Source: Clostridia bacterium (GTDB lineage: Bacteria; Bacillota; Clostridia; Oscillospirales; CAG-272). From it: 64,000 nucleotides of DNA. The DNA lies in contig JAFQOX010000041.1 in NCBI GenBank assembly GCA_017412045.1, positions 1 to 64,000 of the forward strand, written 5' to 3'. The first letter of the stretch is position 1; the number at the start of each line of letters is the position of its first letter. Positions 44,227 through 56,287 of this stretch are shown here, piece after piece. Below the pieces are notes generated by a model. The model saw only the letters and a list, made by a program, of their open reading frames with translations, had not been told where the DNA came from and did no database searches. The position numbers and the translations under genes were made by a program.

Positions 44227-45003
44227 ATGGACAAAAAAGATAATATGATATCTGAATATTATACGATTGATTTGTTGCATATCGTGAAACGCGTATGGCA
44301 TTATATTTGGGCGGTTGCTCTGGCAAGCGTGCTTGCGGCAGTAATCGGCTTTTGTTATGCATCCTTCTTGATCGCCCCGACGTATTCCTCCTCGGTCATG
44401 CTCTACGTCAATAACAATTCGTTTTCTGTGGGAAGCACGGACTTTACGATCAGCTCCTCGCAGATCTCGGCGGCGCAAAGCCTGGTTGATACGTACAGCG
44501 AGATCTTAAATAACCGGACCACTTTGGAGCGTGTCATCGATAAAGCCGACATTTCATATAAATATGAAGAGCTTTCCAAAATGATCACGGCGGGTCAGTC
44601 GAACGGTACGGAAATTATGAAGGTCACCGTAGTTTCCGAAAATCCGGAAGAGGCTGCAAAGATCGCGAATGCCATCGCCGAGGTTTTACCGCTCAGAATC
44701 TCGGAGATCATCGAGGGTGCTTCTATGGAAATCGTTGATACGGCAGTTCCGAATTATCGGAAAATTGCGCCGAGCATTACCAAGTATACAGCGGTTGCAT
44801 TTATTTTGGGCTTACTGCTTTCCGTGGGTGTGATTGCGGTATTGGCAATCATGGACGATACGATCCACGATGAAAATTATATCCTCCAGAATTACAATTA
44901 TCCGATTCTGGCGAAGATCCCCGATCTGATGGAAAAGGATTCCAAGCATTACGGCGGATATCACTACTACTATTATCAGGGCGAGCAAGAATCCAAGGAT
45001 TGA
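44227..45003 (+). CDS. Polysaccharide co-polymerase / BY-kinase modulator (Wzz, CpsC/YveK-like)
   Basis: A 258-residue protein with two membrane spans (about residues 25-47 and 180-200) around an extracytoplasmic alpha/beta domain, the classic Wzz/CpsC layout. The second span is followed by a short cytoplasmic tail (MDDTIHDENYILQNYNYPIL) that in this family activates the tyrosine kinase encoded next. It sets polymer chain length and switches the kinase. AAAAAGGAG is 9 nt before ATG 44227. The next gene starts 11 bp after the stop. Confidence 0.85.
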   Translation: MDKKDNMISEYYTIDLLHIVKRVWHYIWAVALASVLAAVIGFCYASFLIAPTYSSSVMLYVNNNSFSVGSTDFTISSSQISAAQSLVDTYSEILNNRTTLERVIDKADISYKYEELSKMITAGQSNGTEIMKVTVVSENPEEAAKIANAIAEVLPLRISEIIEGASMEIVDTAVPNYRKIAPSITKYTAVAFILGLLLSVGVIAVLAIMDDTIHDENYILQNYNYPILAKIPDLMEKDSKHYGGYHYYYYQGEQESKD

Positions 45004-45014
45004 AGGTGAGAGAT

Positions 45015-45800
45015 ATGATGAAAACGAAGCAGAAAAAACACAGTACATCATTTTCGGCAGCCGAAAACGGCAAAACGTTACATAAAAATCTGGATTTTAC
45101 AGCGACGGAGCAATATAAGCTTTTGCGTACCAACCTGGGCTTTACCTTGCCCGCCGGCGAAAAATGTCCCGTCATCGGTGTAACCAGCTCGATCCGAGGC
45201 GAAGGAAAAAGTACGACGTCCATCAACCTTTCGTACGTGCTTGCGGAAAAAGGAAGCAAGGTTTTGCTGATTGACGGAGACCTCAGACTTCCTTCCGTTG
45301 CGAAAAAAATGGAGCTGGACCAGAAAAAGGGTCTGACCGATTTTTTGATGGGTCAGGGTGGCAATCTGGAAGATTTCCGATCTCCCTTGCTCGAAAACTG
45401 GTACATTATGACCTCGGGAACGATCCCCCCCAATCCCTCAGAGCTTCTTGGCTCAAGCAGAATGAACGCTCTGCTGACGGAGTTCCGTAAAACGTTCGAT
45501 TATATCGTGCTTGACTTACCTCCCGTGAACCTGGTTTCCGACGCGATGTCTGTTGCGGGATATATTACGGGCATGGTCGTCGTTGCCAGAGAGGAATATA
45601 TCGAGAAGAAGGATCTGAAGGCCTGCTTCCGACAGCTTGAGCTTTCCAACGTCAAGATCCTTGGCTGCGTGATGACGTGCGCAAAACGCAAAAGCGGCTC
45701 GTACGGAAAATACGGTAAATATAAGCGCTATAAATATTACGGTCATTACGGTCACGATGCCGAAAGTCAAAAAGAAAGCGGAAAGGGTGGCAAGCCGTGA
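45015..45800 (+). CDS. Bacterial tyrosine kinase CpsD/CapB type
   Basis: A 261-residue autophosphorylating BY-kinase. Walker A at about 58-68 (SSIRGEGKSTT), Walker A' in VLLIDGDLRLPS, Walker B in YIVLDLPPVN. A C-terminal tyrosine cluster (SYGKYGKYKRYKYYGHYGH) is the autophosphorylation tail. Paired with the membrane activator upstream and the phosphatase downstream, whose GTG overlaps its TGA, it should control polysaccharide synthesis by cycling tyrosine phosphorylation. Start ATG 45015 has AGGTG 6 nt upstream; ATG 45018 is an alternative. Confidence 0.9.
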   Translation: MMKTKQKKHSTSFSAAENGKTLHKNLDFTATEQYKLLRTNLGFTLPAGEKCPVIGVTSSIRGEGKSTTSINLSYVLAEKGSKVLLIDGDLRLPSVAKKMELDQKKGLTDFLMGQGGNLEDFRSPLLENWYIMTSGTIPPNPSELLGSSRMNALLTEFRKTFDYIVLDLPPVNLVSDAMSVAGYITGMVVVAREEYIEKKDLKACFRQLELSNVKILGCVMTCAKRKSGSYGKYGKYKRYKYYGHYGHDAESQKESGKGGKP

Positions 45801-46498
45801 TTGACTGGCACTCCCATATCTTGCCGAATATGGATGACGGAAGCCGCAACGTGTCGGAAAGCACGACTCTTCTGAGAATGCTGTCCGATCAGGGCGTCGA
45901 TACCGTTGTCGCCACGCCGCACTTTTATGCGACCGCAGAGTCGGCGGAGGATTTTTTGCGAAGAAGAGCGCAATGCCATGAAAGCCTGACGGCTTCGATT
46001 CCATCCGATTTTGACTGCCCGCGCATTTTGCTCGGTGCGGAGGTCAAATATTATCCGGGGATCAGCGCGCGAGAGGATCTGCGTGATTTTTGTATCGAAG
46101 GTACGCGGTTGCTTTTATTGGAAATGCCTTTTTCCGAATGGACGGAATACACGGTCAGGGAATTGAACGTGCTTGCCTGTTCAAAGGGCGTTACCATTGT
46201 TCTGGCGCATATCGAGCGATATTTGCCGTTCCAGAAATCAGATTTGTGGAATCGGCTTCGCAATAACGGCATATTGATGCAAATGAATGCAAGCTATTTT
46301 TCAGGTCTCGGCACGAGGCGGAAAGCGCTTCGCTTGCTGGAGGACGGTTTCGTCCATATGCTTGGATCGGACTGTCACAACACGACCTCACGGCCGCCCT
46401 TGATGTCACGCGCTTGCGGCGTGATACGTAAGAGGTTCGGAGAAAACTTTATCAGTCAAATGCATGAGTACGGTCATTCCTTACTCGTGTATAAATAA
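45797..46498 (+). CDS. PHP-type protein-tyrosine phosphatase CpsB/CapC
   Basis: A 233-residue metal-dependent phosphatase of the PHP family that dephosphorylates CpsD-type kinases. Metal ligands are visible in the N-terminal IDWHSHILPNMDDGS, in VVATPHFYATAES, GAEVKYY, LAHIERYLPF and LGSDCHNTTSRPP, the standard CpsB/YwqE series. It starts with GTG 45797, overlapping the kinase stop by 4 bp (GTGA), so the two are translationally coupled; GGGTGG lies upstream. Confidence 0.93.
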   Translation: MIDWHSHILPNMDDGSRNVSESTTLLRMLSDQGVDTVVATPHFYATAESAEDFLRRRAQCHESLTASIPSDFDCPRILLGAEVKYYPGISAREDLRDFCIEGTRLLLLEMPFSEWTEYTVRELNVLACSKGVTIVLAHIERYLPFQKSDLWNRLRNNGILMQMNASYFSGLGTRRKALRLLEDGFVHMLGSDCHNTTSRPPLMSRACGVIRKRFGENFISQMHEYGHSLLVYK

Positions 46499-46527
46499 AA
46501 TACTTATTTTCAGAAAGGATTTTCAAA

Positions 46528-47289
46528 ATGAAAAAAATCGTATTGTTTGTCATGGTTCTTGCCCTGACGCTTAGCTGGAGCCTCGCAGTCTCCGCTAATT
46601 TCGTTCCCAGCATTGAAGCAAAACCCGCTCCCGAGGTTTCCGGCGCTACTGACGAAGCAGGTGAAGCAATCCAGATGGTCATCGTTTCCTTGGCCAATAA
46701 GGATGAGCTTCCCGAAGAAGCAAAGCAGGCTCTCGAAACTGCTTACAACCAGATCGTAAATGCAAAAGACATTTCCGAGGTAAGCGCAACGATCAAGGAA
46801 CAGATCGAAGAATTGGCAGAAAATGCCGGCGTTGAGGCGGAAGAGCTCATTGCTTCCGATCTCTTTGATCTCAGCCCCGAAAATCTCGGCGAAGCTACCG
46901 AGAACGGCGAGTACAACATTTCTCTTGCCGTTCCTTCCCTGAAGAACTTCGTTTGTCTGCTCCACTACGTTGACGGCGAATGGGAAATCGTTTCCAACGC
47001 AAAGGTTTCCGCAGACGGTAAGAACCTTGAGTTCTCCGTAGACGGCTTCTCTCCCTTTGCAATCATCACTGCTTCTCCCGATGCAGTCGTTGATCCTGCA
47101 AGAAAGCCCGTTCCGCTGGTCGTTTGGATTCTGATCGGTATTCTCGTCGGCGCTCTGATCGACGTTGCTATCATTTTCTTCATGGAAAAGAAAGCAAAAC
47201 AGACTGCTGCTGCGGTTAACGCAAACCAGGCTCTGAAGGACAGCGCTGAAGAAAACGTTGCAAGCAAAGATAAGCGCTCCAAAAAATAA
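46528..47289 (+). CDS. Exported protein with C-terminal membrane anchor, unknown function
   Basis: A 253-residue protein with a signal peptide (MKKIVLFVMVLALTLSWSLA, cleavage near AVSA), a helical segment (about 60-115) and a beta-rich domain (about 125-190). A C-terminal membrane span (PLVVWILIGILVGALIDVAI) is followed by a charged cytoplasmic tail. No family recognised. Position between CpsB and an LCP ligase suggests a cell-envelope or polysaccharide role. AAAGGA precedes ATG 46528. Low-complexity acidic residues dominate the outer part. Confidence 0.7.
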   Translation: MKKIVLFVMVLALTLSWSLAVSANFVPSIEAKPAPEVSGATDEAGEAIQMVIVSLANKDELPEEAKQALETAYNQIVNAKDISEVSATIKEQIEELAENAGVEAEELIASDLFDLSPENLGEATENGEYNISLAVPSLKNFVCLLHYVDGEWEIVSNAKVSADGKNLEFSVDGFSPFAIITASPDAVVDPARKPVPLVVWILIGILVGALIDVAIIFFMEKKAKQTAAAVNANQALKDSAEENVASKDKRSKK

Positions 47290-47298
47290 TCGCATACA

Positions 47299-48288
47299 AT
47301 GAAAAGAATCGAAGATAACAAAACGCATTACGGAATCTATATCGTAACGGTTTCGGTTATTGTTAGTCTTCTGATCGGTGCCCTGTCGTTTTTGTTCATA
47401 TGGGAAAAGCGACAGGGCACTTTCCCTTCACAAACGGCGCCCGAAGTTTTTGAATATGAAGGTGAAACGTACGTTTTGAAAAAAGATATTCAAACCTTCC
47501 TCGTGCTCGGTCTTGATAAATTTGAAACCGGTTCGCCCAACGTTTCCTATAACAATGATCAGCAGGCGGACTTTTTGATGCTCCTGGTCATTGATAACAA
47601 TGAAAAAAAGGTTTCCGCGCTTCAGATCAATCGCGATACCATGACGGACGTGAATATTCTTGGCTTGAATGGAAACCGCGTCGATACCGTTACCATGCAG
47701 ATCGCGCTTTCCCATACCTATGGAAACGGAAAGGTGATCAGCTGTCATAACGCGATGGAGTCGGTTTCAAAGCTTTTGAAAAACGTCAAAATTGATCATG
47801 GAATGTCCATGAAAATGGACGCGGTTTCCATTTTCAACGACCTTGTCGGCGGTGTCGAGATCACGCTCACGGAGGATTTTACTTATCTGGACGCCTCGAT
47901 GGTCAAGGGCGCGACGGTTCTTTTGAAGGGGGAGCAGGCACTGCATTACGTGCGCAGCCGTTCCGGATTTGAGGACAGCAGTAATATTGCTCGTATGGAA
48001 CGCCAAAGACAATATATGAATGCGCTGTATGAACGCGTATTGGATGCCATAGACAAGGATGATTCTTTTATTCTGGACGCTTCCCTGAAAACTGCGGATT
48101 ATATCGTTTCCGATTGTTCGACCGCGCAGCTGCAGCGTTTGGCAGATAAATTGATTGATTATGAATTTTCCGGCATCCGGACCCTGGACGGTGAAAGCGT
48201 AAAGGGCGAAAAATATATGGAGTTTTATCCGACCGAGGATTCGATCATGAAGAACGTGCTGGAGCTTTTCTATACGAAAAAAGATTGA
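47299..48288 (+). CDS. LytR-CpsA-Psr (LCP) family ligase
   Basis: A 329-residue membrane protein. One N-terminal span (about residues 12-33) and an extracellular LCP domain with QTFLVLGLDKFE, QADFLMLLVIDNNEKKVSAL, LQINRDTMTDV and HYVRSRSGFEDSSNIARMER (shortened core RSRSGFEDSSNIARMERQRQ), the Arg/Asp residues that bind lipid-linked glycan pyrophosphate. LCP enzymes attach polysaccharide to peptidoglycan, matching the cps genes upstream. No clear ribosome site is seen before ATG 47299, 9 bp after the previous stop, so translation may be coupled. Confidence 0.9.
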   Translation: MKRIEDNKTHYGIYIVTVSVIVSLLIGALSFLFIWEKRQGTFPSQTAPEVFEYEGETYVLKKDIQTFLVLGLDKFETGSPNVSYNNDQQADFLMLLVIDNNEKKVSALQINRDTMTDVNILGLNGNRVDTVTMQIALSHTYGNGKVISCHNAMESVSKLLKNVKIDHGMSMKMDAVSIFNDLVGGVEITLTEDFTYLDASMVKGATVLLKGEQALHYVRSRSGFEDSSNIARMERQRQYMNALYERVLDAIDKDDSFILDASLKTADYIVSDCSTAQLQRLADKLIDYEFSGIRTLDGESVKGEKYMEFYPTEDSIMKNVLELFYTKKD

Positions 48289-48299
48289 TTTCACGACAT

Positions 48300-48366
48300 C
48301 AAATATCCCCGGAGCATTGTGCCGACCGTATCGCAGTCGGTTTGATGTGTCCGGGGATATTTTTCG
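48300..48366. terminator. Terminator between the polysaccharide operon and spoIIID
   Basis: AAATATCCCCGGA pairs with TCCGGGGATATTT around an inner CCGAC/GTCGG-type stem, followed by T-rich sequence; convergent position. Confidence 0.75.
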
Positions 48367-48389
48367 TTTGACGGGAAAATTTGAAGCCT

Positions 48390-48563
48390 TTACCCGTTTT
48401 CTGATAAAGGATCAGCGCAGACCTTTTGTTGCATATATTTTTGGCGGGTAGCTTCTCCGCCTCTCACGTGCCGTTCCTGTTTATTTTGCTCCAGAACGGT
48501 GGCGACCTCTCGGTGAAGCGATGGGTTGATATGCTTCAACCGCTCGCTTACGTCCTTATGTAC
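48390..48563 (-). pseudogene. spoIIID: spoIIID 3' part (interrupted gene, codons 37 onward)
   Basis: From the shared core, the minus strand reads VHKDVSERLKHINPSLHREV, then ATVLEQNKQERHVRGGEATR and QKYMQQK, ending at TAA 48390. This is the second half of SpoIIID, the mother-cell transcription regulator; the ERHVRGGEATRxKY segment is its C-terminal basic signature. The frame has no start or ribosome site of its own. Joined to 52116-52002 at the GTACATA core it gives an in-frame 93-residue SpoIIID with no extra or missing base. It is therefore not a decayed gene but one half of a gene split by the 3.4-kb element. Confidence 0.9.
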
Positions 48564-48569
48564 GGACGT
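48550..48569. promoter_or_regulatory. Recombination site (att), left end of the spoIIID element
   Basis: ACGTCC-TTATGTAC-GGACGT: 6-bp inverted arms (48550-48555, 48564-48569) around the 7-bp core TATGTAC (48557-48563). Dyad arms around a short asymmetric core are what a serine recombinase dimer recognises. Confidence 0.75.
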
Positions 48570-48627
48570 TGGAAACAGGAATGCTACGGACGCGCCGCCC
48601 GATTGGCAATGAGAGCGCAAAAACGTC

Positions 48628-50118
48628 TTAAGTGAAAGCGTTCAGATAAATATCAATATATCCCTCCTTGTCCACCTTGATCTCCCGAATGATTTCCTTC
48701 AGCTTCGCGTTGGAGAGCGCACGGATATCCGTGATGGCTTCTGTATTGCGAAAAACAGAGTCCAGCGCGTTTTCAAAATTTTTCTGATGAGATTCGCGGG
48801 AATATGCTTGCCGTTCGTATTCCAGCCGTAGGATTTCCGCTTTTATGACAGACAGTTTTTTCTGTAATTCTTCGAGAGAGATCATATCGTTTGTGAAAAG
48901 GCAGATCAGCTTTTCTCTGTAAGCTTGGAGTTCAGAGAGCCTTTTTTCGATTGATTCTTTTTCTTTTTCGGCTTTCCCGTTTTTGGCGTATTTTTGCAAG
49001 AATATTTCTTTCGCCGCGCGGATATATTTTTCTTTTTCGGAAAGAAGCGCGGAAAAATATTTTCGGATCTCGGAAATGAGAACGTCCTCGTCGATCTGAA
49101 CTGCGTTCGGACAAGCGCCCGTTCCCTGCTGATTACGCCCCGAGCAGCTCCAACGCACGTAGGTGTTTTGATAAGTTCTGCTGATACGGCGGAAGGAGTA
49201 GCCGCATTCCTCGCATTGGATCAGCGTGGAAAACAGGTGTCGGTTGCTATGCCTCGTTTTGTTTGTTTGAAAGGAACGACTTCGCTCCTCCAAAAGTCTT
49301 TGCGCTTTCTCAAAAGTCGCTTCATCAATGATTTTCAGATCGGGATTTTGCGTGATAAAAAAATCCTTTTCATCTTTGTTCACGCGCTTGCTGTCCGGGA
49401 AATTCACGATTTCCTGTTTGCCGTTGACGATCCTGCCGATATAAATAGGGTGAGAAAGGATTCTCGCCACGGCATTTTGCGACCATTTACAGCCGCGCTT
49501 GGTGGTGATTCCCATACCGTTGAGGATTTGCGCGATCTTTAACGTACCCTCCCCGTCCTCAGTATATTTTTTGAAAATCATCCGCACGGTTTCCGCTTCT
49601 TTTTCATTGATATTCAAATGAAAATAGTCCCCGTTGATCTTATCATAACCGAAAATGAGATTGGGTACTTTCCCCTTTTCCGCGTTGAATCGTTTGCTGA
49701 ATTTGATTCGCTGGGACGTATGGCGGCTCTCCTCCTGCGCCATTGCAGCCAGCAAGGTCAGCATAAATTCATTTCCGCCCATGTTGCTCATCCGACCGTT
49801 CAGAAATTGTACGTCAATGCCGAGCGACAGAAGCTTTCGGTAAGCATCTAAAAAATCCAGCGTATTGCGCGCGAGTCGGGAAACGTCCTTGATGAGAACG
49901 GCTTGAAACGTACGCGACTCCGCGTCGTGCATCATTTGATTGAATGCGGCGCGGTTTTTTGTTTTCGTGCCCGAAATTCCCTGATCGGAATAAATGTGAA
50001 GCAGATGCATTCCGTTTTTTTGCGCGTACGCCCCGAAGAACTCTTTTTGGGTTTGCAAGCTGTTCAGCTGATCCTTTTCATCCGTGGAAACACGGCAATA
50101 AGCAACGACGTTGAGCAT
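48628..50118 (-). CDS. Large serine recombinase (SpoIVCA-like)
   Basis: A 496-residue site-specific recombinase. The N-terminal resolvase domain has the nucleophile S11 in AYCRVSTDEKDQ, then LIKDVSRLARNTLDFL and MAQEESRHTSQRIKF. The Recombinase domain (about 155-260) includes GMGITTKRGCKWSQNAVARI. A zinc ribbon at about 310-350 has Cys pairs CEECGYSFRR and CSGRNQQGTGAC, followed by a coiled coil (about 375-450). It should catalyse recombination between the two TATGTAC sites. Start MLNVVAYC at 50118 with AGGTAGGTG upstream; the longer open frame is only translated repeat DNA. It ends 65 bp from the left att core. Confidence 0.95.
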   Translation of the reverse strand: MLNVVAYCRVSTDEKDQLNSLQTQKEFFGAYAQKNGMHLLHIYSDQGISGTKTKNRAAFNQMMHDAESRTFQAVLIKDVSRLARNTLDFLDAYRKLLSLGIDVQFLNGRMSNMGGNEFMLTLLAAMAQEESRHTSQRIKFSKRFNAEKGKVPNLIFGYDKINGDYFHLNINEKEAETVRMIFKKYTEDGEGTLKIAQILNGMGITTKRGCKWSQNAVARILSHPIYIGRIVNGKQEIVNFPDSKRVNKDEKDFFITQNPDLKIIDEATFEKAQRLLEERSRSFQTNKTRHSNRHLFSTLIQCEECGYSFRRISRTYQNTYVRWSCSGRNQQGTGACPNAVQIDEDVLISEIRKYFSALLSEKEKYIRAAKEIFLQKYAKNGKAEKEKESIEKRLSELQAYREKLICLFTNDMISLEELQKKLSVIKAEILRLEYERQAYSRESHQKNFENALDSVFRNTEAITDIRALSNAKLKEIIREIKVDKEGYIDIYLNAFT

Positions 50119-50135
50119 AAAACACCTACCTCTCT

Positions 50136-50246
50136 TTTTTATCGCATAGGAAATTGCGCAAATAGAACCTCGCCGTTTATATCGTTTGGATACAGTCTTA
50201 ACTGCGATAGGCGAGCAACCTCCGGCGGGCGTTGCCCGCTTTTTTA
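50136..50246 (-). repeat. Dispersed intergenic repeat, short form, upstream of the recombinase
   Basis: The minus-strand copy runs from GCGGGCAACGCCCGC through GCTCGCCTATCGCAGTTAAG and AAACGGCGAGGT to GCGCAATTTCCTATGCG. On the plus strand its hairpin is followed by TTTTTT and works as a terminator. It separates the recombinase from the 61-aa gene. Confidence 0.75.
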
Positions 50247-50432
50247 TCATGCGCTATACGAAGAGGCGTCGTTTTCCGCGGGGCGTTCCAGCCCTTTTGC
50301 GGCAGCCGTATGTAAAATCATTTCTTCTATCCTTTCCATATTTGCTTCCACGGCTGTCTTTAAAAAGAAAAGGGCGGTGATTTCCTCGGTATTGGGATCG
50401 TGAAATCGAAAAACGTAATTTTTTTCCTTCAT
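50247..50432 (-). CDS. 61-residue protein upstream of the recombinase
   Basis: A small soluble protein, MKEKNYVFRFHDPNTEEITA followed by a helical segment (LFFLKTAVEANMERIEEMIL) and a polar tail. GGAGG lies 5 nt before ATG 50432, giving strong support for translation. Same strand as the recombinase and within the element. No family is certain. Its size and position would suit a recombination directionality factor or a regulator of the recombinase; that is inference. The last codons extend into the edge of the dispersed repeat. Confidence 0.7.
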   Translation of the reverse strand: MKEKNYVFRFHDPNTEEITALFFLKTAVEANMERIEEMILHTAAAKGLERPAENDASSYSA

Positions 50433-50582
50433 ATTTTCCTCCGGATTGGATTTGTTTTTGATCGATCCATAGCAATATACGATATTGGCGCTTGCATATC
50501 GGCTTTTATTTGCTGAACGCTTGATGAAATCAAGGATATGCAAAAAAATTTACCGATTATTCATACACGCCGCCATAAAATG

Positions 50583-50737
50583 TGGTATACTGTTACAAAA
50601 GAGCTTTCGTGAGCACCGGACCGCCGTGGGACGACAGGGTCCCGAATTTGAAAATCATATGGCAACGAATGGTTTCCGGATCATCTCTGAATATTTTTGA
50701 CTACCCCCGAGCCGCTTGATTCGGGGGTTTTTCGTTT
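50583..50737 (+). ncRNA. Possible structured leader or small RNA upstream of the epimerase gene
   Basis: An extended -10 (TGGTATACT, 50583-50591) is followed by about 110 nt with GGACC/GGTCC-type pairing (CCGGACCGCCGTGGGACGAC and AGGGTCCCG). A terminator then follows (CCCCCGA/TCGGGGG with T-run, 50704-50733), and the epimerase start lies a further 120 bp on. It could be a short RNA or a transcription attenuator for the epimerase. I do not recognise a known riboswitch class. An alternative open frame through it has no ribosome site. Confidence 0.4.
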
Positions 50738-50854
50738 GGCGGAGCAGCACTTCGTTCGTATGAGAACCATTGGCTTCATACCGTTGCGATGACTTTATTT
50801 TGAATGGGACGGAAATGGGTTAAAATCCCAATCATAAAAAGGAGATTTCGTGAG

Positions 50855-51949
50855 ATGAAAACCATTATGCTTGTGTTCGGCACACGCCCGGAGGCGATCA
50901 AAATGTGCCCCCTTGTAAACGAATTGAAGACGAGAAAAACAGTCCGGACGGTCGTATGCGTGAGCGGTCAACACCGTCAAATGCTGGATACGGTGCTGGA
51001 TACCTTCCGGGTGATTCCGGATTATGATCTTTCCGTTATGAAAACGGGTCAAACCTTGTTTGACGTTACGAGCAATATACTGCTCGGCATCGGAAACGTT
51101 CTGGATGAAGCGAAGCCGGACGTCGTGCTGGTCCATGGAGATACCTCGACTGCGTTCGCTGCCGCCCTCGCGTGCTTTTATAAGAAGATTCCAGTCGGAC
51201 ACGTGGAAGCAGGACTGCGGACGTATAACGTCGACAGCCCTTATCCGGAAGAATTCAACCGTCGCGCGATCGGGATCGTTGCCAGATATCATTTTGCTCC
51301 CACCGCGCTTTCCGGGGGCAACCTGCTGAACGAGGGTAAGGATCCGTCTTCGGTCTATATTACGGGCAATACCGCGATCGATGCGCTCCAAACCACCGTT
51401 CGAAAGGATTATAGGCATCCGGAGCTGGATTGGGCAAGGGACAGCAGGCTGATCATGATTACCGCGCATCGCCGCGAAAATCTCGGTGAGCCCATGCGTC
51501 GGATGTTCCGCGCGATCCGCCGCGTGATGGATGACCACCCGGACGTCAAAGCGATCTATCCGATTCATATGAACCCTGCGGTGCGACGGGCAGCAAAAGA
51601 AACGTTGGACGGCTGTGACCGAATCCATATGATCGAACCGCTCGACGTGATCGCTTTTCATAATTTTCTGGCGCGCAGCTTTATGATTCTGACGGATAGC
51701 GGCGGCGTTCAGGAGGAAGCGCCTTCGCTGGGGAAGCCCGTGCTTGTCATGCGGGATACCACGGAACGTCCCGAAGGAATTCGGGCGGGAACGCTGAAGC
51801 TGGTCGGCACGGACGAGCAGGTCATTTATGACAACTTCCGCTTGCTGCTGGAGGACCGCGCCGTATATGAATCCATGTCCGAAGCGAGCAATCCGTACGG
51901 AGACGGCCTTGCCTGTAAAAGAATTGCCGATATATTGACGCAGATATAA
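50855..51949 (+). CDS. wecB: UDP-N-acetylglucosamine 2-epimerase (non-hydrolysing)
   Basis: A 364-residue GT-B-fold enzyme interconverting UDP-GlcNAc and UDP-ManNAc, a precursor for teichoic-acid linkage units and ManNAc-containing polysaccharides. Signatures: MLVFGTRPEAIKMCPLV, SGQHRQMLD, VLVHGDTSTAFAAALACFY, VGHVEAGLRTYNVDSPYPEE, TAHRRENLGEPM and DSGGVQEEAPSLGKPVLVMR (catalytic and UDP-binding residues). ATG 50855 has AAGGAG 10 nt upstream. It lies wholly inside the spoIIID element, convergent with the 5' half of spoIIID, 11 bp away. A housekeeping-type enzyme as cargo of an excisable element is unusual. Confidence 0.93.
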   Translation: MKTIMLVFGTRPEAIKMCPLVNELKTRKTVRTVVCVSGQHRQMLDTVLDTFRVIPDYDLSVMKTGQTLFDVTSNILLGIGNVLDEAKPDVVLVHGDTSTAFAAALACFYKKIPVGHVEAGLRTYNVDSPYPEEFNRRAIGIVARYHFAPTALSGGNLLNEGKDPSSVYITGNTAIDALQTTVRKDYRHPELDWARDSRLIMITAHRRENLGEPMRRMFRAIRRVMDDHPDVKAIYPIHMNPAVRRAAKETLDGCDRIHMIEPLDVIAFHNFLARSFMILTDSGGVQEEAPSLGKPVLVMRDTTERPEGIRAGTLKLVGTDEQVIYDNFRLLLEDRAVYESMSEASNPYGDGLACKRIADILTQI

Positions 51950-51960
51950 GGTCAAAGAGC

Positions 51961-52116
51961 TTACTGCTGATCTGTCCGGCAGTTCCGTTTTGTCACGTCT
52001 GTATGTACCGTTGATTTGCTGATGCCGAAGGCTGCCGCGGTCTTTCGGACGGTATTTTTCGTATCGACGATATATTCACCAAGCCTGATCGCGCGGTCCC
52101 GCGTATTTTCTTTCAA
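51961..52116 (-). pseudogene. spoIIID: spoIIID 5' part (interrupted gene, codons 1-38)
   Basis: TTG 52116, with AAAGGAGG 7 nt upstream, opens the frame MKENTRDRAIRLGEYIVDTK, NTVRKTAAAFGISKSTVH: the N-terminal helix-turn-helix half of SpoIIID. It matches the family in spacing, with V37-H38 at the crossover. After the core the frame runs 13 codons of element DNA and stops at 51961, giving a 51-residue truncated protein in the unexcised state. The truncated product keeps the helix-turn-helix but lacks the C-terminal basic region needed for normal DNA binding. Joining to 48556-48390 restores 93 residues. Confidence 0.9.
51995..52014. promoter_or_regulatory. Recombination site (att), right end of the spoIIID element
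   Basis: Core TATGTAC at 52002-52008, flanked by ACGTCT (51995-52000) and CGTTGA. The left arm matches the left site (ACGTCC) at 5 of 6; the right arm is diverged. Confidence 0.7.
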
Positions 52117-52181
52117 AATGATTCCTCCTTTTCGCGTAAAGCTGATCTTGATTTTAAAAATGCCATTGCTATGGTCAATAC

Positions 52182-52209
52182 ATTATATGAACGGAAAACG
52201 GATTTATTC
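52182..52209 (-). promoter_or_regulatory. Sigma-E-like promoter of spoIIID
   Basis: Minus-strand GAATAAA (52203-52209), 13 bp, CATATAAT (52182-52189). This fits the mother-cell sigma-E pattern (ATA-centred -35, CATACAxT-like -10, 13-14 bp apart) better than sigma-A. It is about 66 bp upstream of the spoIIID start. Confidence 0.5.
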
Positions 52210-52269
52210 TATGAAACGGACAAAGCCGATTTTTGAAAATCGCGTGTTTTCAAGAAAAATTTTGCTTGT

Positions 52270-52327
52270 CTCCGGACAATGCAAACGGCGAGGACAATTT
52301 TGCGTAATTTCCTATGGAATAAAAAAG
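52270..52327 (+). repeat. Left boundary repeat of the AT-rich island (half copy of the dispersed repeat)
   Basis: AAACGGCGAGGACAAT followed by the 29-bp boundary sequence (52299-52327), which starts TTTGCGTAATTTCC and ends TATGGAATAAAAAAG. Identical 29 bp recur at 60641-60669. The hairpin end of the repeat is absent here and present at the right boundary. Confidence 0.75.
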
Positions 52328-52370
52328 AGCCGGCTTGTCCGTTACGATGAACGGAAAGCTGGCTCTGCAC
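52326..52370 (-). terminator. Terminator of the KTR gene
   Basis: AGAGCCGGCTTGTCCG pairs with CGGAAAGCTGGCTCT around a short loop; the minus strand continues into TTTTTT. It overlaps the 3' end of the coding region. Confidence 0.75.
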
Positions 52371-52557
52371 ATTTGTGTCGGGCGCATTTGCTTAGCACCA
52401 TTTTTAATTTTACAACGTCTATCCGAAATTCTTTTTTACACTTCGGACAGTATAGCGGAAACTTTACAAGGACTGTATCTTCATACACTTTTGTTCTTGT
52501 CTTGCCTCCGCAAGTCGGACAACGAATCCATAAAGATTCTTTTTGATCGTCAATCAT
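52342..52557 (-). CDS. Cysteine-rich KTR-type small zinc-ribbon protein
   Basis: A 71-residue protein with IRCPTCGGKTRTKVYEDTVL and FPLYCPKCKKEF: two CPxC knuckles and the KTR motif that names this family, often found on Firmicutes transposons and conjugative elements. Probably binds one zinc; function unknown. ATG 52557 follows GGAGG at 6 nt. It sits just inside the left boundary of the accessory island. Confidence 0.88.
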   Translation of the reverse strand: MIDDQKESLWIRCPTCGGKTRTKVYEDTVLVKFPLYCPKCKKEFRIDVVKLKMVLSKCARHKCAEPAFRSS

Positions 52558-52643
52558 ATTTTGCCTCCAAATAATGGATAGCTCTGCATTAGATGTCCGG
52601 CTCTGGAAAGTTTTGCTTATTGTTACAACAGAGAAAAATATAT

Positions 52644-54128
52644 TTATTTAATATATGGGCTTGCTTTATGATTTTTAATTTTGATCTTTGACACATAGGC
52701 GTTGTTGCCGTATAAATCAAAAAGATCAAGCAGATGTGTAACACATATCCAACGAATATGTTGAGAAGATAAATATTGCAAGATATGGTAAAGATTTTGT
52801 GTTCCTTCCGCATAAGAGGTGGTTTGAAATAATTCGTTGAGAACTACCATTGCACCATCGACGGAATGATTAATGATATCTGCAATTTTGATGACTTCTT
52901 CTTCAAAACGTCCGGCGTTTCCGAGGATATCCAATGTGTTTTCTGATGATGCCATCAATACATGCAAAGCACATATGGGAACGATTGAAGCTTTCTTTGC
53001 GAGAATTGGCAAACCCGCTTGAGCAAACAGGTAGGCAGTTGTAACAGAGCGAAGATAAACGGTTTTTCCACTACCATTGTCACCGCGTATCAGCATACCT
53101 CCGATATTTTGCGAGAGGAAAAAATCGTTTGGAATAACGGTTGTTTCTTCGGAGCAACGGAAAAGTAAAAACACATCGTATAAATCCAATATTTCGGTTT
53201 GATTTCCGAACAATGGAAAAACGTACGGCGTTTTCAAGTCTTGCAATTTATCCAAAAGATGACAAGCGGTTTCATAAAATAATAGATCATCTTTGATCCC
53301 CATAAACTCAGATAAGATTTGATTTGCTACTTCAATCAAGGCGTCTGTAATATCTGAAAGGCTCTGTCCAACAATTTTTTCTGTGGTAAAGGAGTTATAA
53401 TTCAGCGGAATTTCGTCCTTTTGTTTTTCCTTTTTGTCGTCATATTCATGTTTTTTGAAGAAACTAAATTTTTTAGGTTCTTTTTTCGGATTTAAAACAG
53501 GTATATCTTCTACTGACGATAAAAGACGAATATTTGTAAGTTGTGCGTTTTCGCCCAATTCAAATGCAATATCTGCATGTAAGTGAATTGCAATTAATCG
53601 ATCATATTTTTTAGCAATAGCAAGTAATTGGGTAAAACTGTCCGATTTCACAATCGTGTGCAAACGAACTTGAAGCGCAAGAAGTCCTGCTGAATGAAGC
53701 GGAAGTCCATCTATAGTTGCATCGAGTTTTTGAAGTAAAAGCAACAAATCTCGTATTAGTATGCAAATGGATTGCAAAGTTGATACACCCGAATCGATCA
53801 TCGTACCTACCGCTTTTCGATATGTTAGTTTATTGTTTTGCCTTGTTTTGTTATATTCCAATACAACGGATACAAATGCACCGAAAAGGTCAGATAAATT
53901 TGCTAAGAGAAATCGATGACTCATAAAATCTCGTAAAATATCCTGCCGATATAGAATATCTTCCGTTTCAATCAATGGTTCGGCAAGAATGTTCAAAAAA
54001 TGATTTCTTTTTTCCTTTTCGGGGATAACGAGAGAAATTGCGTTATCAATCATCAAGGAATCCAATGCCTCTGCGGAAAGCGGAGGCGCTTTTTTCGGTG
54101 TGGAATTTCGATAAAGCAGGCTAATCAT
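52644..54128 (-). CDS. MutS-like ATPase (second of pair)
   Basis: A 494-residue protein with the MutS core/lever and ATPase domains but no N-terminal mismatch-recognition domain. Walker A GDNGSGKTVYLRSV (about residue 348); the Walker B region reads GAMVVLNELFQTTSYAEG, with Asn where MutS has the Mg-binding Asp (canonical LLDELGRGT); CVTHLLDL is the terminal His motif. The charged segment around 220-245 (KKHEYDDKKEKQKDE) is a linker. It probably acts as a dimer with the paralogue just upstream, overlapping it by 8 bp. AAAGGA precedes ATG 54128. Cellular role unknown; ordinary mismatch repair is unlikely. Confidence 0.82.
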   Translation of the reverse strand: MISLLYRNSTPKKAPPLSAEALDSLMIDNAISLVIPEKEKRNHFLNILAEPLIETEDILYRQDILRDFMSHRFLLANLSDLFGAFVSVVLEYNKTRQNNKLTYRKAVGTMIDSGVSTLQSICILIRDLLLLLQKLDATIDGLPLHSAGLLALQVRLHTIVKSDSFTQLLAIAKKYDRLIAIHLHADIAFELGENAQLTNIRLLSSVEDIPVLNPKKEPKKFSFFKKHEYDDKKEKQKDEIPLNYNSFTTEKIVGQSLSDITDALIEVANQILSEFMGIKDDLLFYETACHLLDKLQDLKTPYVFPLFGNQTEILDLYDVFLLFRCSEETTVIPNDFFLSQNIGGMLIRGDNGSGKTVYLRSVTTAYLFAQAGLPILAKKASIVPICALHVLMASSENTLDILGNAGRFEEEVIKIADIINHSVDGAMVVLNELFQTTSYAEGTQNLYHILQYLSSQHIRWICVTHLLDLFDLYGNNAYVSKIKIKNHKASPYIK

Positions 54129-55584
54129 TTATTTTTCCTTTCTCAGCAAGTGAAACCCGGTCCAATCCGTATTTTTTCAAAATATCCTCCGCATAGGAAC
54201 GCTTCTCTCGGACACCGCGTTCAATTTTGAATGTTCGCTGATTTTCTTGATCGGTGTTTACAGCCGCACACAGAACAGGAAATTCAAATTCCATGACCTC
54301 ATAAAAATGTGTAACAAAAAGGCAAAACGCATTTTTCTCTGCAAAATTTCTCATAAATGAAAGTGAAAGTGATAATCCCTTTCGTGCATCTGCTCCTGTA
54401 AAGGTTTCGTTTAGAAAAAAGAAACTATTTTCTGTCCCTTTATCCAACATAGCACGGACACGGTATTCCTCATCAAAAAGCCTTCCACCCCGATCAAAAT
54501 GTTCATCCGCTGGAAAATGTGTAAAGATCAAATCAAACGGGAAAATTTCCGCCGACTCACAAAAAATCGGGCAACCACTCAAAAAAAGAATTAAGTTGGA
54601 TGCAACCGCACGCAGATATGTTGTTTTACCGCCACCATTTGCACCGAGCAAGAAAAAGCAGTGTTCATTTTCCGTGAAAAATACTTGATTGGGTACATAT
54701 TGACCGTGCGGTATGTGTTTAGCAAGAAGCGAAATATCATAAATATCTTTTGCAATATATTGTTTGCGATCGGAAACCGTGGCGAAGGAATATGGTATTT
54801 CGTGTTCGGCTGCACGTTCGAGCAAATTTAAAACAGAAAGATAAAAATCAGCCTCTTCTTTGAGCAAGGACACATCGTTGTCAAGGACATCGTGAAGCAC
54901 TTCCTTGAGTTCAAGAAGACGAGAAAATTCGTTCGGATAAAGCAACTGCAAGTTTTCTGAAATCGGAATCGACATACGAATGGTTTGCTGTATAGAAATA
55001 TCTTCAGAATATCCGAAGGCGCGTTTGCAATCTTTGATTTCGTCGATGACAGAAGAGGGATGTTCCGTGCTTTTGGATTTGAGAATGTGAGCGCTTCCCG
55101 ATGATACATGAATCTTCGAGTGAGAAATTGCATCCAATAAGTTCTGATATTCTGAAAATAACGATTCATATTCAAGAAACTCCCGTTGTTTTTGCTTGGC
55201 ATACGCAGAAAGTCTTTCGATGAACACGCAGTTTGTCGAAGGAAGTTCTTGGATGCTTGCAATCAACACTTGAAAGCCCCGATAATGTTTTGCGAAAAGG
55301 AATAGACCTTCACACTCCGTTTCCGCTTCTGTAAAAACCTTGTTGGAATGGAGAAATGCAGTCAGAGTATCATGAAAGGAAGAAAATCTTTCTCTAAACA
55401 AGGGTTCCATCAAGGCGCGAAATAATCTTTGGCGTGCTAATATTTCGTCTGTCGGGCAAATAACCTTTAAGAATGACCAAGTTCTATCATCAAGAATGCG
55501 AGAAAGACCGCTATCCTCAATGACGTGATGATCGATGTATCGATATTTGTAATCGGGAGAAAGGCTTAAAATCGAAAGCTTCAT
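54121..55584 (-). CDS. MutS-like ATPase (first of pair)
   Basis: A 487-residue paralogue of the next gene. Walker A GANGGGKTTYLRAVASNL (about 342), the P-loop-linked helix, and a Walker B-like FFFLNETFTGADARKG, again with Asn-Glu instead of Asp-Glu; then LFVTHFYEV. The N-terminal 300 residues are helical (lever-like), without mismatch-binding or connector domains. It starts 4 bp after the XRE stop and overlaps the next MutS gene, so XRE-MutS-MutS form one translationally coupled operon. The low G+C of the codons differs from the flanking chromosome. Confidence 0.82.
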   Translation of the reverse strand: MKLSILSLSPDYKYRYIDHHVIEDSGLSRILDDRTWSFLKVICPTDEILARQRLFRALMEPLFRERFSSFHDTLTAFLHSNKVFTEAETECEGLFLFAKHYRGFQVLIASIQELPSTNCVFIERLSAYAKQKQREFLEYESLFSEYQNLLDAISHSKIHVSSGSAHILKSKSTEHPSSVIDEIKDCKRAFGYSEDISIQQTIRMSIPISENLQLLYPNEFSRLLELKEVLHDVLDNDVSLLKEEADFYLSVLNLLERAAEHEIPYSFATVSDRKQYIAKDIYDISLLAKHIPHGQYVPNQVFFTENEHCFFLLGANGGGKTTYLRAVASNLILFLSGCPIFCESAEIFPFDLIFTHFPADEHFDRGGRLFDEEYRVRAMLDKGTENSFFFLNETFTGADARKGLSLSLSFMRNFAEKNAFCLFVTHFYEVMEFEFPVLCAAVNTDQENQRTFKIERGVREKRSYAEDILKKYGLDRVSLAEKGKIND

Positions 55585-55588
55585 AAGC

Positions 55589-56287
55589 TCACCACCATGC
55601 TGACAATTTGTTTTTATTCGAGCGTTCTACAAGTCCGCTGCGAAGCAATTCCAATGCAGATGCAGGCAAAGCACCCTCAACCACAGAATATTCTATGAGT
55701 GAAGCATAGATTGCACCGCGGGCTACAAGCGGCTTTAACAATCGGATATCCATTTCACCATCTAAAATCTTTTGAAATATGGTAAACTGTGCAGTTATAT
55801 CCATCCAAGGAAGCAATTGTTCAATTAAATCATCACTTGCTTGATCGAAATCAGCGTTTTTCAAAAGCTCTACCGTGCTTTCACTATTCAAAAATTCCGC
55901 AAGTTTTAAAATATTGGAAATATCAATTCCTTTGGCAGAAAGACTTGCGGAAAGCTTGTCAAGAATACTCGGTTTCAAAAGCGGCGCAAGATTTACCACA
56001 TCACGAATATTCTCCGCCACGGGTGAAGGTTCTCCGATAGCTACACTTTTTAAAATCGTCGCCTCTCCGTTAGTGGGATCTCCCGAACCGATCAGTTCAT
56101 CTAAGGTAATATGAAATACTTCTGCAATCAAAACAAGGATAGACACGTTCGGAAAACTTTCGCCCTGCTCATATTTTGAAATTGCTTGTCGCGTTACACA
56201 AAGTCGGTCAGCCAATTCCATTTGTGTCATGTCTGCTTTTTTGCGAAGTGCGGCAAGATATCTGCCGAATTTTGTGATGTCAAACAT
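55589..56287 (-). CDS. XRE-family transcriptional regulator
   Basis: A 232-residue protein with an N-terminal HTH_3 domain (residues 5-60: MTQMELADRLCVTRQAISKY) and a helical C-terminal half (about 75-232) that may sense a ligand or dimerise. ATG 56287 is used; an upstream ATG lies too close to the AAAGG site, and spacing for 56287 is long (about 14 nt). It is transcribed away from the ABC genes, and its promoter is a mirror image of theirs in a long inverted repeat, so it probably represses both units. Confidence 0.88.
   Translation of the reverse strand: MFDITKFGRYLAALRKKADMTQMELADRLCVTRQAISKYEQGESFPNVSILVLIAEVFHITLDELIGSGDPTNGEATILKSVAIGEPSPVAENIRDVVNLAPLLKPSILDKLSASLSAKGIDISNILKLAEFLNSESTVELLKNADFDQASDDLIEQLLPWMDITAQFTIFQKILDGEMDIRLLKPLVARGAIYASLIEYSVVEGALPASALELLRSGLVERSNKNKLSAWW

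What the first reader, a model, noticed from the sequence alone, without database searches (positions are those of the whole stretch)
48557..52008. spoIIID is split by a 3.4-kb element encoding its own serine recombinase: a skin-like developmental rearrangement in a new host gene
Seen directly: on the minus strand, 52116-52002 encodes the N-terminal half of SpoIIID and stops soon after TATGTAC (plus-strand reading); 48563-48390 encodes the C-terminal half starting at another TATGTAC. Joining at the core gives a continuous 282-nt frame with no indel, codon 39 being assembled from both sides. The reconstituted 93-aa protein keeps the family spacing (SKSTVHKDVSERL). Between the halves lies a large serine recombinase gene ending 65 bp from one core. 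Established: skin elements in sigK, excised by the SpoIVCA serine recombinase in the mother cell, have this architecture. Inference: the element is excised during sporulation to make SpoIIID. I am not aware of spoIIID having been described as a host for such an element.
Basis: partly seen in the sequence, partly recalled or inferred. Interest (0 to 1): 0.96.

Follow-up and report, generated by a model that had tools for sequence, protein, structure and literature searches.

The report
Mobile elements splitting sporulation gene spoIIID
A key sporulation gene is cut in two by a small DNA element that carries its own precise cutting enzyme; the same cut recurs at the same place in many related bacteria, so these bacteria probably have to edit their own chromosome before they can finish a spore.

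Summary
spoIIID, with no other copy found in this 87.7%-complete draft genome, is split at codon 38/39 by a 3.4-kb element holding a large serine recombinase, a small conserved ORF and a UDP-GlcNAc 2-epimerase gene. Joining the flanks restores a 93-residue frame. Of 80 named loci with related recombinases, 48 have spoIIID sequence downstream. Reconstructed attP sites are palindromic around one dinucleotide in 15 of 17 elements. Two distinct IMG/VR viral integrases have an uncut attP. sigma-E-like promoters are enriched before the recombinase operon. Unexpectedly, attP usually lies inside the recombinase gene, so integration removes a conserved C-terminal tail (not in this window's element). 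Against: two congeneric carriers have a frameshifted 5' half. Excision during sporulation is inferred; no read or bench data exist here. My literature searches found no report of spoIIID as host gene. Verdict: new variant of a known kind (skin-like elements).

The parts
52002..52116 (-). 5' half of spoIIID, up to and including the core
   Evidence: PF12116 profile 2-51, E 1.6e-15; frame
52002..52008 (.). core copy (TATGTAC) at the 5'-half junction
48564..52001 (.). element between the two cores
50804..51949 (+). UDP-GlcNAc 2-epimerase (wecB/mnaA-type) cargo gene; the only match in this draft
   Evidence: PF02350 E 1.2e-116; one match in each of 7 genomes of the genus
50532..50562 (-). sigma-E-like promoter (-35 at 50562-50555, -10 at 50541-50532), 109 nt upstream of the small ORF
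   Evidence: p 0.005; not the best site when a more upstream start codon was assumed
50247..50432 (-). small conserved ORF, 61 aa: candidate recombination directionality factor
   Evidence: relatives in 41 of 72 elements; alignment A2
48628..50118 (-). large serine recombinase, 496 aa
   Evidence: PF00239, PF07508, PF13408; PHROG 95 integrase E 4.8e-113
48557..48563 (.). core copy (TATGTAC) at the 3'-half junction
48390..48563 (-). 3' half of spoIIID, from the core to the stop codon
   Evidence: PF12116 profile 35-81, E 3.5e-19; frame

Best explanation
The 3.4-kb segment is a site-specifically integrated mobile element. Its large serine recombinase uses a conserved site in the DNA-binding region of spoIIID as attB and crosses over at the CA of GTACAT. 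It belongs to a family of recombinases whose relatives sit in spoIIID across the class, carrying phage-, conjugation- or cargo-type DNA. SHOWN by sequence: the insertion site, in-frame restoration, no other copy in the draft, recurrence, conservation of both halves in nearly all carriers, a symmetric attP, viral contigs with an uncut attP. [quoted passage not shown]
For: Split gene and restored frame; intact congeners. Same split in 22 of 336 and 18 of 285 genomes. spoIIID sequence downstream of the recombinase in 48 of 80 named loci. attP symmetric in 15 of 17, p 0.002 here. Uncut attP in two distinct viral integrases. 68 3' halves of the first sets and 15 of 15 class ones reach the family C terminus; pN/pS 0.36 and 0.34. 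sigma-E-like promoter p<=0.05 in 23 of 40 operons, 1 of 41 in the negative control. Small ORF in the position of B. subtilis skr (PMC6957869, passages).
Against: No read, expression or excision data. G616 and G673 (one genus) have a frameshift in the 5' half. The promoter result depends on the chosen start codon: 14 of 41 and no site for this window. The viral contig L194 has no significant sigma-E-like site (p 0.37). The small ORF is absent by my search from 31 of 72 elements and has no structural match. Part of the purifying selection may predate insertion. I did not test whether this genome has a full sporulation gene set.
Confidence: 0.82

Rival explanations
1. Plain disruption: the element sits in spoIIID without scheduled excision, and carriers are losing or have lost sporulation, or rely on rare random excision.
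For: G616 and G673 share a frameshift in the 5' half. No excised junction was observed. Excision in sporulation was not testable here. In this genus the 5' half of G000 shows slightly higher pN than pairs of intact species (0.18-0.21 against 0.10-0.18).
Against: The other halves examined stay open, with pairs such as L158/L160 showing 12 synonymous and 0 non-synonymous differences. Recombinase frames and symmetric att sites are kept. A sigma-K-type gene is whole in G000.
Confidence: 0.14
2. Misassembly or a chimeric contig.
For: Draft genome; several other genomes have contig ends within about 125 bp of the core, e.g. G234, G555, G673, G705, G743.
Against: The same junction in many independent assemblies, including single-contig genomes G043 and G529 and the 6.3-Mb contig of S. 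arabinosiphila DSM 106076, which holds both halves.
Confidence: 0.01
3. Excision happens but is driven by phage-like induction or host stress rather than by the sporulation programme.
For: Viral contigs of the clade exist as uncut forms; in C. difficile the recombinase gene itself is expressed in growth (PMC5025042, abstract).
Against: sigma-E-like promoters are enriched upstream of the small ORF/recombinase operon in elements.
Confidence: 0.1

Closest known systems
skin elements in sigK (B. subtilis SpoIVCA/Skr; C. difficile CD1231/CD1234)
   Same: Large serine recombinase in the element, interrupted mother-cell regulatory gene, small ORF encoding a directionality factor (upstream of spoIVCA in B. 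subtilis) (PMC6957869 and PMC5025042, passages and abstract).
   Different: Host gene is spoIIID, which acts before sigK. Excision here is unproven. Stretches from sigK interruptions of four double carriers held only distant recombinases (24-25%) or none.
gin (gerE), vfbin (spoVFB), SPbeta (spsM), yin (yabG) and phi3T (kamA) interruptions
   Same: Mobile DNA splits a sporulation gene at a short core and precise excision restores it (PMC5595907, PMC10747680, PMC6957869, passages).
   Different: Other host genes; those I read of are described in single species or strains, whereas this site recurs across a class.
SPbeta recombinase YokA (SprA)
   Same: The longest solved relative by sequence: profile of A1 against 9dxh, E 2.5e-21.
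   Different: Distant; targets spsM.
Integration-dependent immunity of mycobacteriophage BPs
   Same: attP lies inside a phage gene, so integration shortens its product at the C terminus (PMC4557955, abstract).
   Different: There the gene is the repressor; here it is the recombinase, and the target gene usually supplies the new stop codon. Not seen in this window's own element.

Membership tests
Sporulation-gene intervening (skin-like) elements | Element lies inside a sporulation gene whose halves join in frame at a short core | tested here: met
Sporulation-gene intervening (skin-like) elements | Element encodes its own site-specific recombinase | tested here: met
Sporulation-gene intervening (skin-like) elements | attL and attR consistent with one integration of a circle (symmetric attP) | tested here: met
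   p 0.002 for this element, 15 of 17 elements
Sporulation-gene intervening (skin-like) elements | A directionality factor is encoded in the element | tested here: inconclusive
   conserved small ORF in 41 of 72; function untested
Sporulation-gene intervening (skin-like) elements | Recombination genes under mother-cell (sigma-E) control | tested here: inconclusive
   motif enrichment; depends on start codon
Sporulation-gene intervening (skin-like) elements | Excision as a circle in the mother cell during sporulation | not testable with these tools
   no reads or expression data
Sporulation-gene intervening (skin-like) elements | Sporulating host with no other copy of the gene | tested here: inconclusive
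   no other copy in an 87.7%-complete draft; sigma-K-model best match whole but under the curated cut-off; sporulation untested
Large serine recombinases | Resolvase, Recombinase and zinc-ribbon domains with the catalytic serine motif | tested here: met
   invariant YCRVST in A1; role of the serine recalled

The most novel reading that the evidence does not exclude
spoIIID is a class-wide landing site whose integrases read their own integration state: attP lies inside the integrase gene, so integration exchanges a conserved C-terminal tail (Y-x-S-N-x-x-E-R-F-[VI]-W) for a stop codon usually supplied by spoIIID, giving different enzyme forms for integration and excision. In genomes that carry both this element and an interrupted sigK, spore formation would run through an ordered two-step chromosome rearrangement, spoIIID first and sigK second. 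In the window's own element the recombinase stops before the core, so the tail switch is a property of most of the family, not of this member.
Probability: 0.35. Interest if true: 0.95.

Novelty: new variant of a known kind. Interest (0 to 1): 0.88.

Why it matters
In C. difficile sigma-E and SpoIIID together control sigK transcription and sigK skin excision (PMC5025042, abstract and passages). An obligatory DNA rearrangement in spoIIID would put programmed chromosome editing one step higher in the mother-cell programme, in about 6% of the spoIIID-bearing genomes sampled. It bears on how gut Clostridia sporulate, on calls of 'non-sporulating' made from draft genomes with a broken spoIIID, and on how phages and cargo islands exploit a cell line that dies. 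The recombinase family also offers integrases with a defined, conserved target site.

Tried and rejected
Rejected: the 7-bp repeat as evidence by itself. Rejected: G229 as a split gene; its two matches abut with a frameshift. G053 diverges from spoIIID about 15 bp past the core and is the least certain of the 22. Rfam over 45000-56000: no match. Seven of eight large ORFs of the 65-kb G529 element had no PHROG match at 1e-10, only the recombinase did; Pfam shows conjugation-type genes instead. Fold search of the small ORF: no match. The model of a full-length integrase is poor at the tail (pLDDT below 50 over 497-526). Exact searches of IMG/VR for this element's attP and for a family attP pattern: no match. 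Recombinases in four sigK interruptions: no match to this window's recombinase at 1e-3; the G114 recombinase as query finds 24-25% relatives in the G103 and G217 stretches (for G103 only the two ends were fetched). A first promoter scan used start codons set too far upstream (14 of 41 at p<=0.05, this window p 0.65; elements without the small ORF 4 of 30); one search repeats it with the start nearest the conserved motif (23 of 40, this window p 0.005). Tail codon counts had one row out of frame and are superseded. Literature: nine searches of an open-access library; subscription papers, preprints and supplements were not searched.
Full report
OBSERVATION. PF12116 finds no other copy in G000 (2.57 Mb, 158 contigs, 87.7% complete). 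Joining inside the core gives the 93-residue protein. Of six congeners, G002, G003 and G006 have intact spoIIID; G005 reads through the core until its contig ends; G004 is split at the same core, halves on two contigs, with a 66%-identical recombinase; G001 has no match. So the gene is interrupted here and whole in relatives.

RECURRENCE. PF12116 was run over 394 genomes of the order; 336 matched. I picked the 23 with weak best matches. On a closer look G229 is a frameshift, leaving 22: 15 with both halves on one contig in the same orientation (3.4 to 34.9 kb apart), 2 with halves on two contigs, 5 with only one half. In all 15 single-contig cases the joined frame is open. In the class, 393 genomes gave 285 matches and 18 candidates, three of them already counted. 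The 15 new ones match as halves meeting at the same site: both halves on one contig in 6, on two contigs in 7, only the 3' half in 2. The largest spans 64.9 kb in the single-contig genome G529. All 15 3' halves are open. Of 13 5' halves, 11 are open, while G616 and G673, of one genus, share a frameshift. In some class genomes (G529, G462, G767) the element end repeats more of spoIIID than the 7-bp core.

RECOMBINASE FAMILY. spoIIID sequence lies downstream on the same strand in 48: 48 of the first 53 listed (L114-L166) and none of the other 27. In 47 of the 48 it is the 3' part only; L138 has nearly a whole gene there besides a 5' half. In 4 of the 48 it lies more than 1 kb downstream. Blautia glucerasea MSK.21.93 (L116), Pseudoflavonifractor phocaeensis An569 (L115) and Anaerobacterium chartisolvens DSM 27016 (L153) show the 3' half only within the DNA held; Schaedlerella arabinosiphila DSM 106076 (L124) and Bacterium D16-36 (L121) show both halves. 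Over the order sample, 16 genomes score above 750 bits with A1 and all 16 are split; 15 of them are alignment rows, so their scores are by construction (G380 is not a row). The informative point is that no other genome in the sample scores above 548 bits.

ATTACHMENT SITE. Joining the element ends gives an attP symmetric around the CA of GTACAT: p<=0.05 in 15 of 17, the same centre in 16 of 17, p 0.002 for this element; G285 and G130 are not significant. The two arms lie kilobases apart in the chromosome, so the symmetry is hard to explain except by integration of a circle at that dinucleotide.

UNCUT FORMS. IMG/VR contig L194 (from a 62-kb contig; endolysin, tail, ligase and helicase-type PHROG matches) carries a 50%-identical integrase with an unbroken attP. 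Three contigs identical over the 7.6 kb held (L341-L343, from contigs of 50, 69 and 119 kb) carry a second, 64% identical to the first; their phage genes were not examined. No spoIIID match was found in the stretches held.

TAIL SWAP. Of 20 elements examined, 17 had a recombinase match next to the 3' half. In 12 of 17 its stop codon is the TAA formed by the core and spoIIID; in 2 more the frame runs through the core; in 3 (G000, G407, G193) it stops before. Among the 48 named loci the stop lies exactly there in 30. In the circular form the frame encodes a conserved tail: 14 tails (13 elements and L194) are open in that frame over 11 codons, while 6 and 13 of 14 have stops in the other two frames, and differences fall 387/282/552 on codon positions 1/2/3. 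Both viral integrases encode such a tail, which supports the reconstruction. What the tail does is unknown, and this window's recombinase does not show it.

CONTROL AND SELECTION. A small ORF (mostly 45-75 aa, motif KLNYRFHNPN) lies upstream of the recombinase in 41 of 72 elements; B. subtilis skr sits in that position (PMC6957869, passages). A sigma-E motif built from published promoters is enriched upstream: 23 of 40 at p<=0.05, 14 of 41 with other start codons; upstream of spoIIID, a positive control, 14 of 22; inside recombinase coding 1 of 41; upstream of recombinases without the small ORF 4 of 30. The 68 3' halves and 30 5' halves of the first sets are not cut short (G365 and L146 are one sequence). 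pN/pS is 0.36 over 67 3' halves and 0.34 over 30 5' halves. Part of that divergence may predate insertion; pairs whose elements are also alike, such as L158/L160 (12 synonymous, 0 non-synonymous), are the fairer test.

MOBILITY AND CARGO. G217 and L122 share an element 97.8% identical over 9 kb while their 3' halves have pS 0.72, so the element moved between hosts. Pfam in the ORFs sampled: conjugation-type and Cas9-like proteins (G529), TraG-type (G407), glycosyltransferase (G365), UDP-sugar dehydrogenase and polysaccharide export (G049), type I restriction (G285), riboflavin synthesis (G193). Here it is one UDP-GlcNAc 2-epimerase gene: one match in each of the 7 genomes of the genus, in the congeners without the window's neighbours in the 1.5 kb around it. 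A single-copy gene held in the element would make loss during growth costly yet harmless in a dying mother cell; this is speculation, and the draft may lack another copy.

CASCADE. With the sigma-K model, halves of a split gene appear in G103, G114, G217 and G380, which also have split spoIIID, and in G001; in G000 the best match is whole, though under the curated cut-off. G170 has a further pair of partial matches that I did not follow. In C. difficile skin excision is under sigma-E and SpoIIID (PMC5025042, abstract and passages). Ordered excision in double carriers is therefore a prediction, not a result.

NOVELTY. Passages I read name sigK, spsM, spoVFB, spoIVFB, spoVR, gerE, kamA and yabG as interrupted genes, not spoIIID. 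Searches pairing spoIIID with skin element, prophage, Lachnospiraceae, interrupted, integration site, or integrative and conjugative gave no such report. I file it as a new variant of skin-like elements.

Noticed in passing
window 50804-51949: UDP-GlcNAc 2-epimerase gene, the only match in this draft, lies inside the element; each congener has one match elsewhere. Possible captured housekeeping gene.
   Followed up: partly
L009 13207-13890 (G004 C62): A purC-type gene, the only match in G004, lies on the element side of the 3' half; it is 95-96% identical to copies in G001 and G002 but about 40% to others of the genus.
   Followed up: partly
G103, G114, G217, G380, G001: sigma-K-model matches are split too, so four genomes carry two interrupted sporulation genes.
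   Followed up: partly
L304 8693-11803 (G529): Cas9-like protein (HNH, RuvC domains) inside the 65-kb element, with conjugation-type genes.
   Followed up: no
L092 7404-10457 (G333): 1018-aa protein matching Pfam RdRP (RNA-dependent RNA polymerase), E 2.3e-13, inside the element.
   Followed up: no
L099/L100 (G234) and L284/L296 (G667): Nearly identical element ends in spoIIID of genomes from different families: recent transfer, or contamination of a bin.
   Followed up: no
L098 (G130 C23): A second, partial 5' half of spoIIID, 95% identical over about 100 bp and joined at the core to other DNA.
   Followed up: partly
L138 7686-14039: A 5' half, the recombinase, and then a nearly whole spoIIID 2.4 kb downstream; arrangement not resolved.
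   Followed up: no
L114 6439-8004: A 51%-identical recombinase runs through the same core into sequence that is neither spoIIID nor the usual tail.
   Followed up: no
L300, L301 (G673, G616): 5' half of spoIIID frameshifted at a run of A in two genomes of one genus: decay, slippage or sequencing error.
   Followed up: partly
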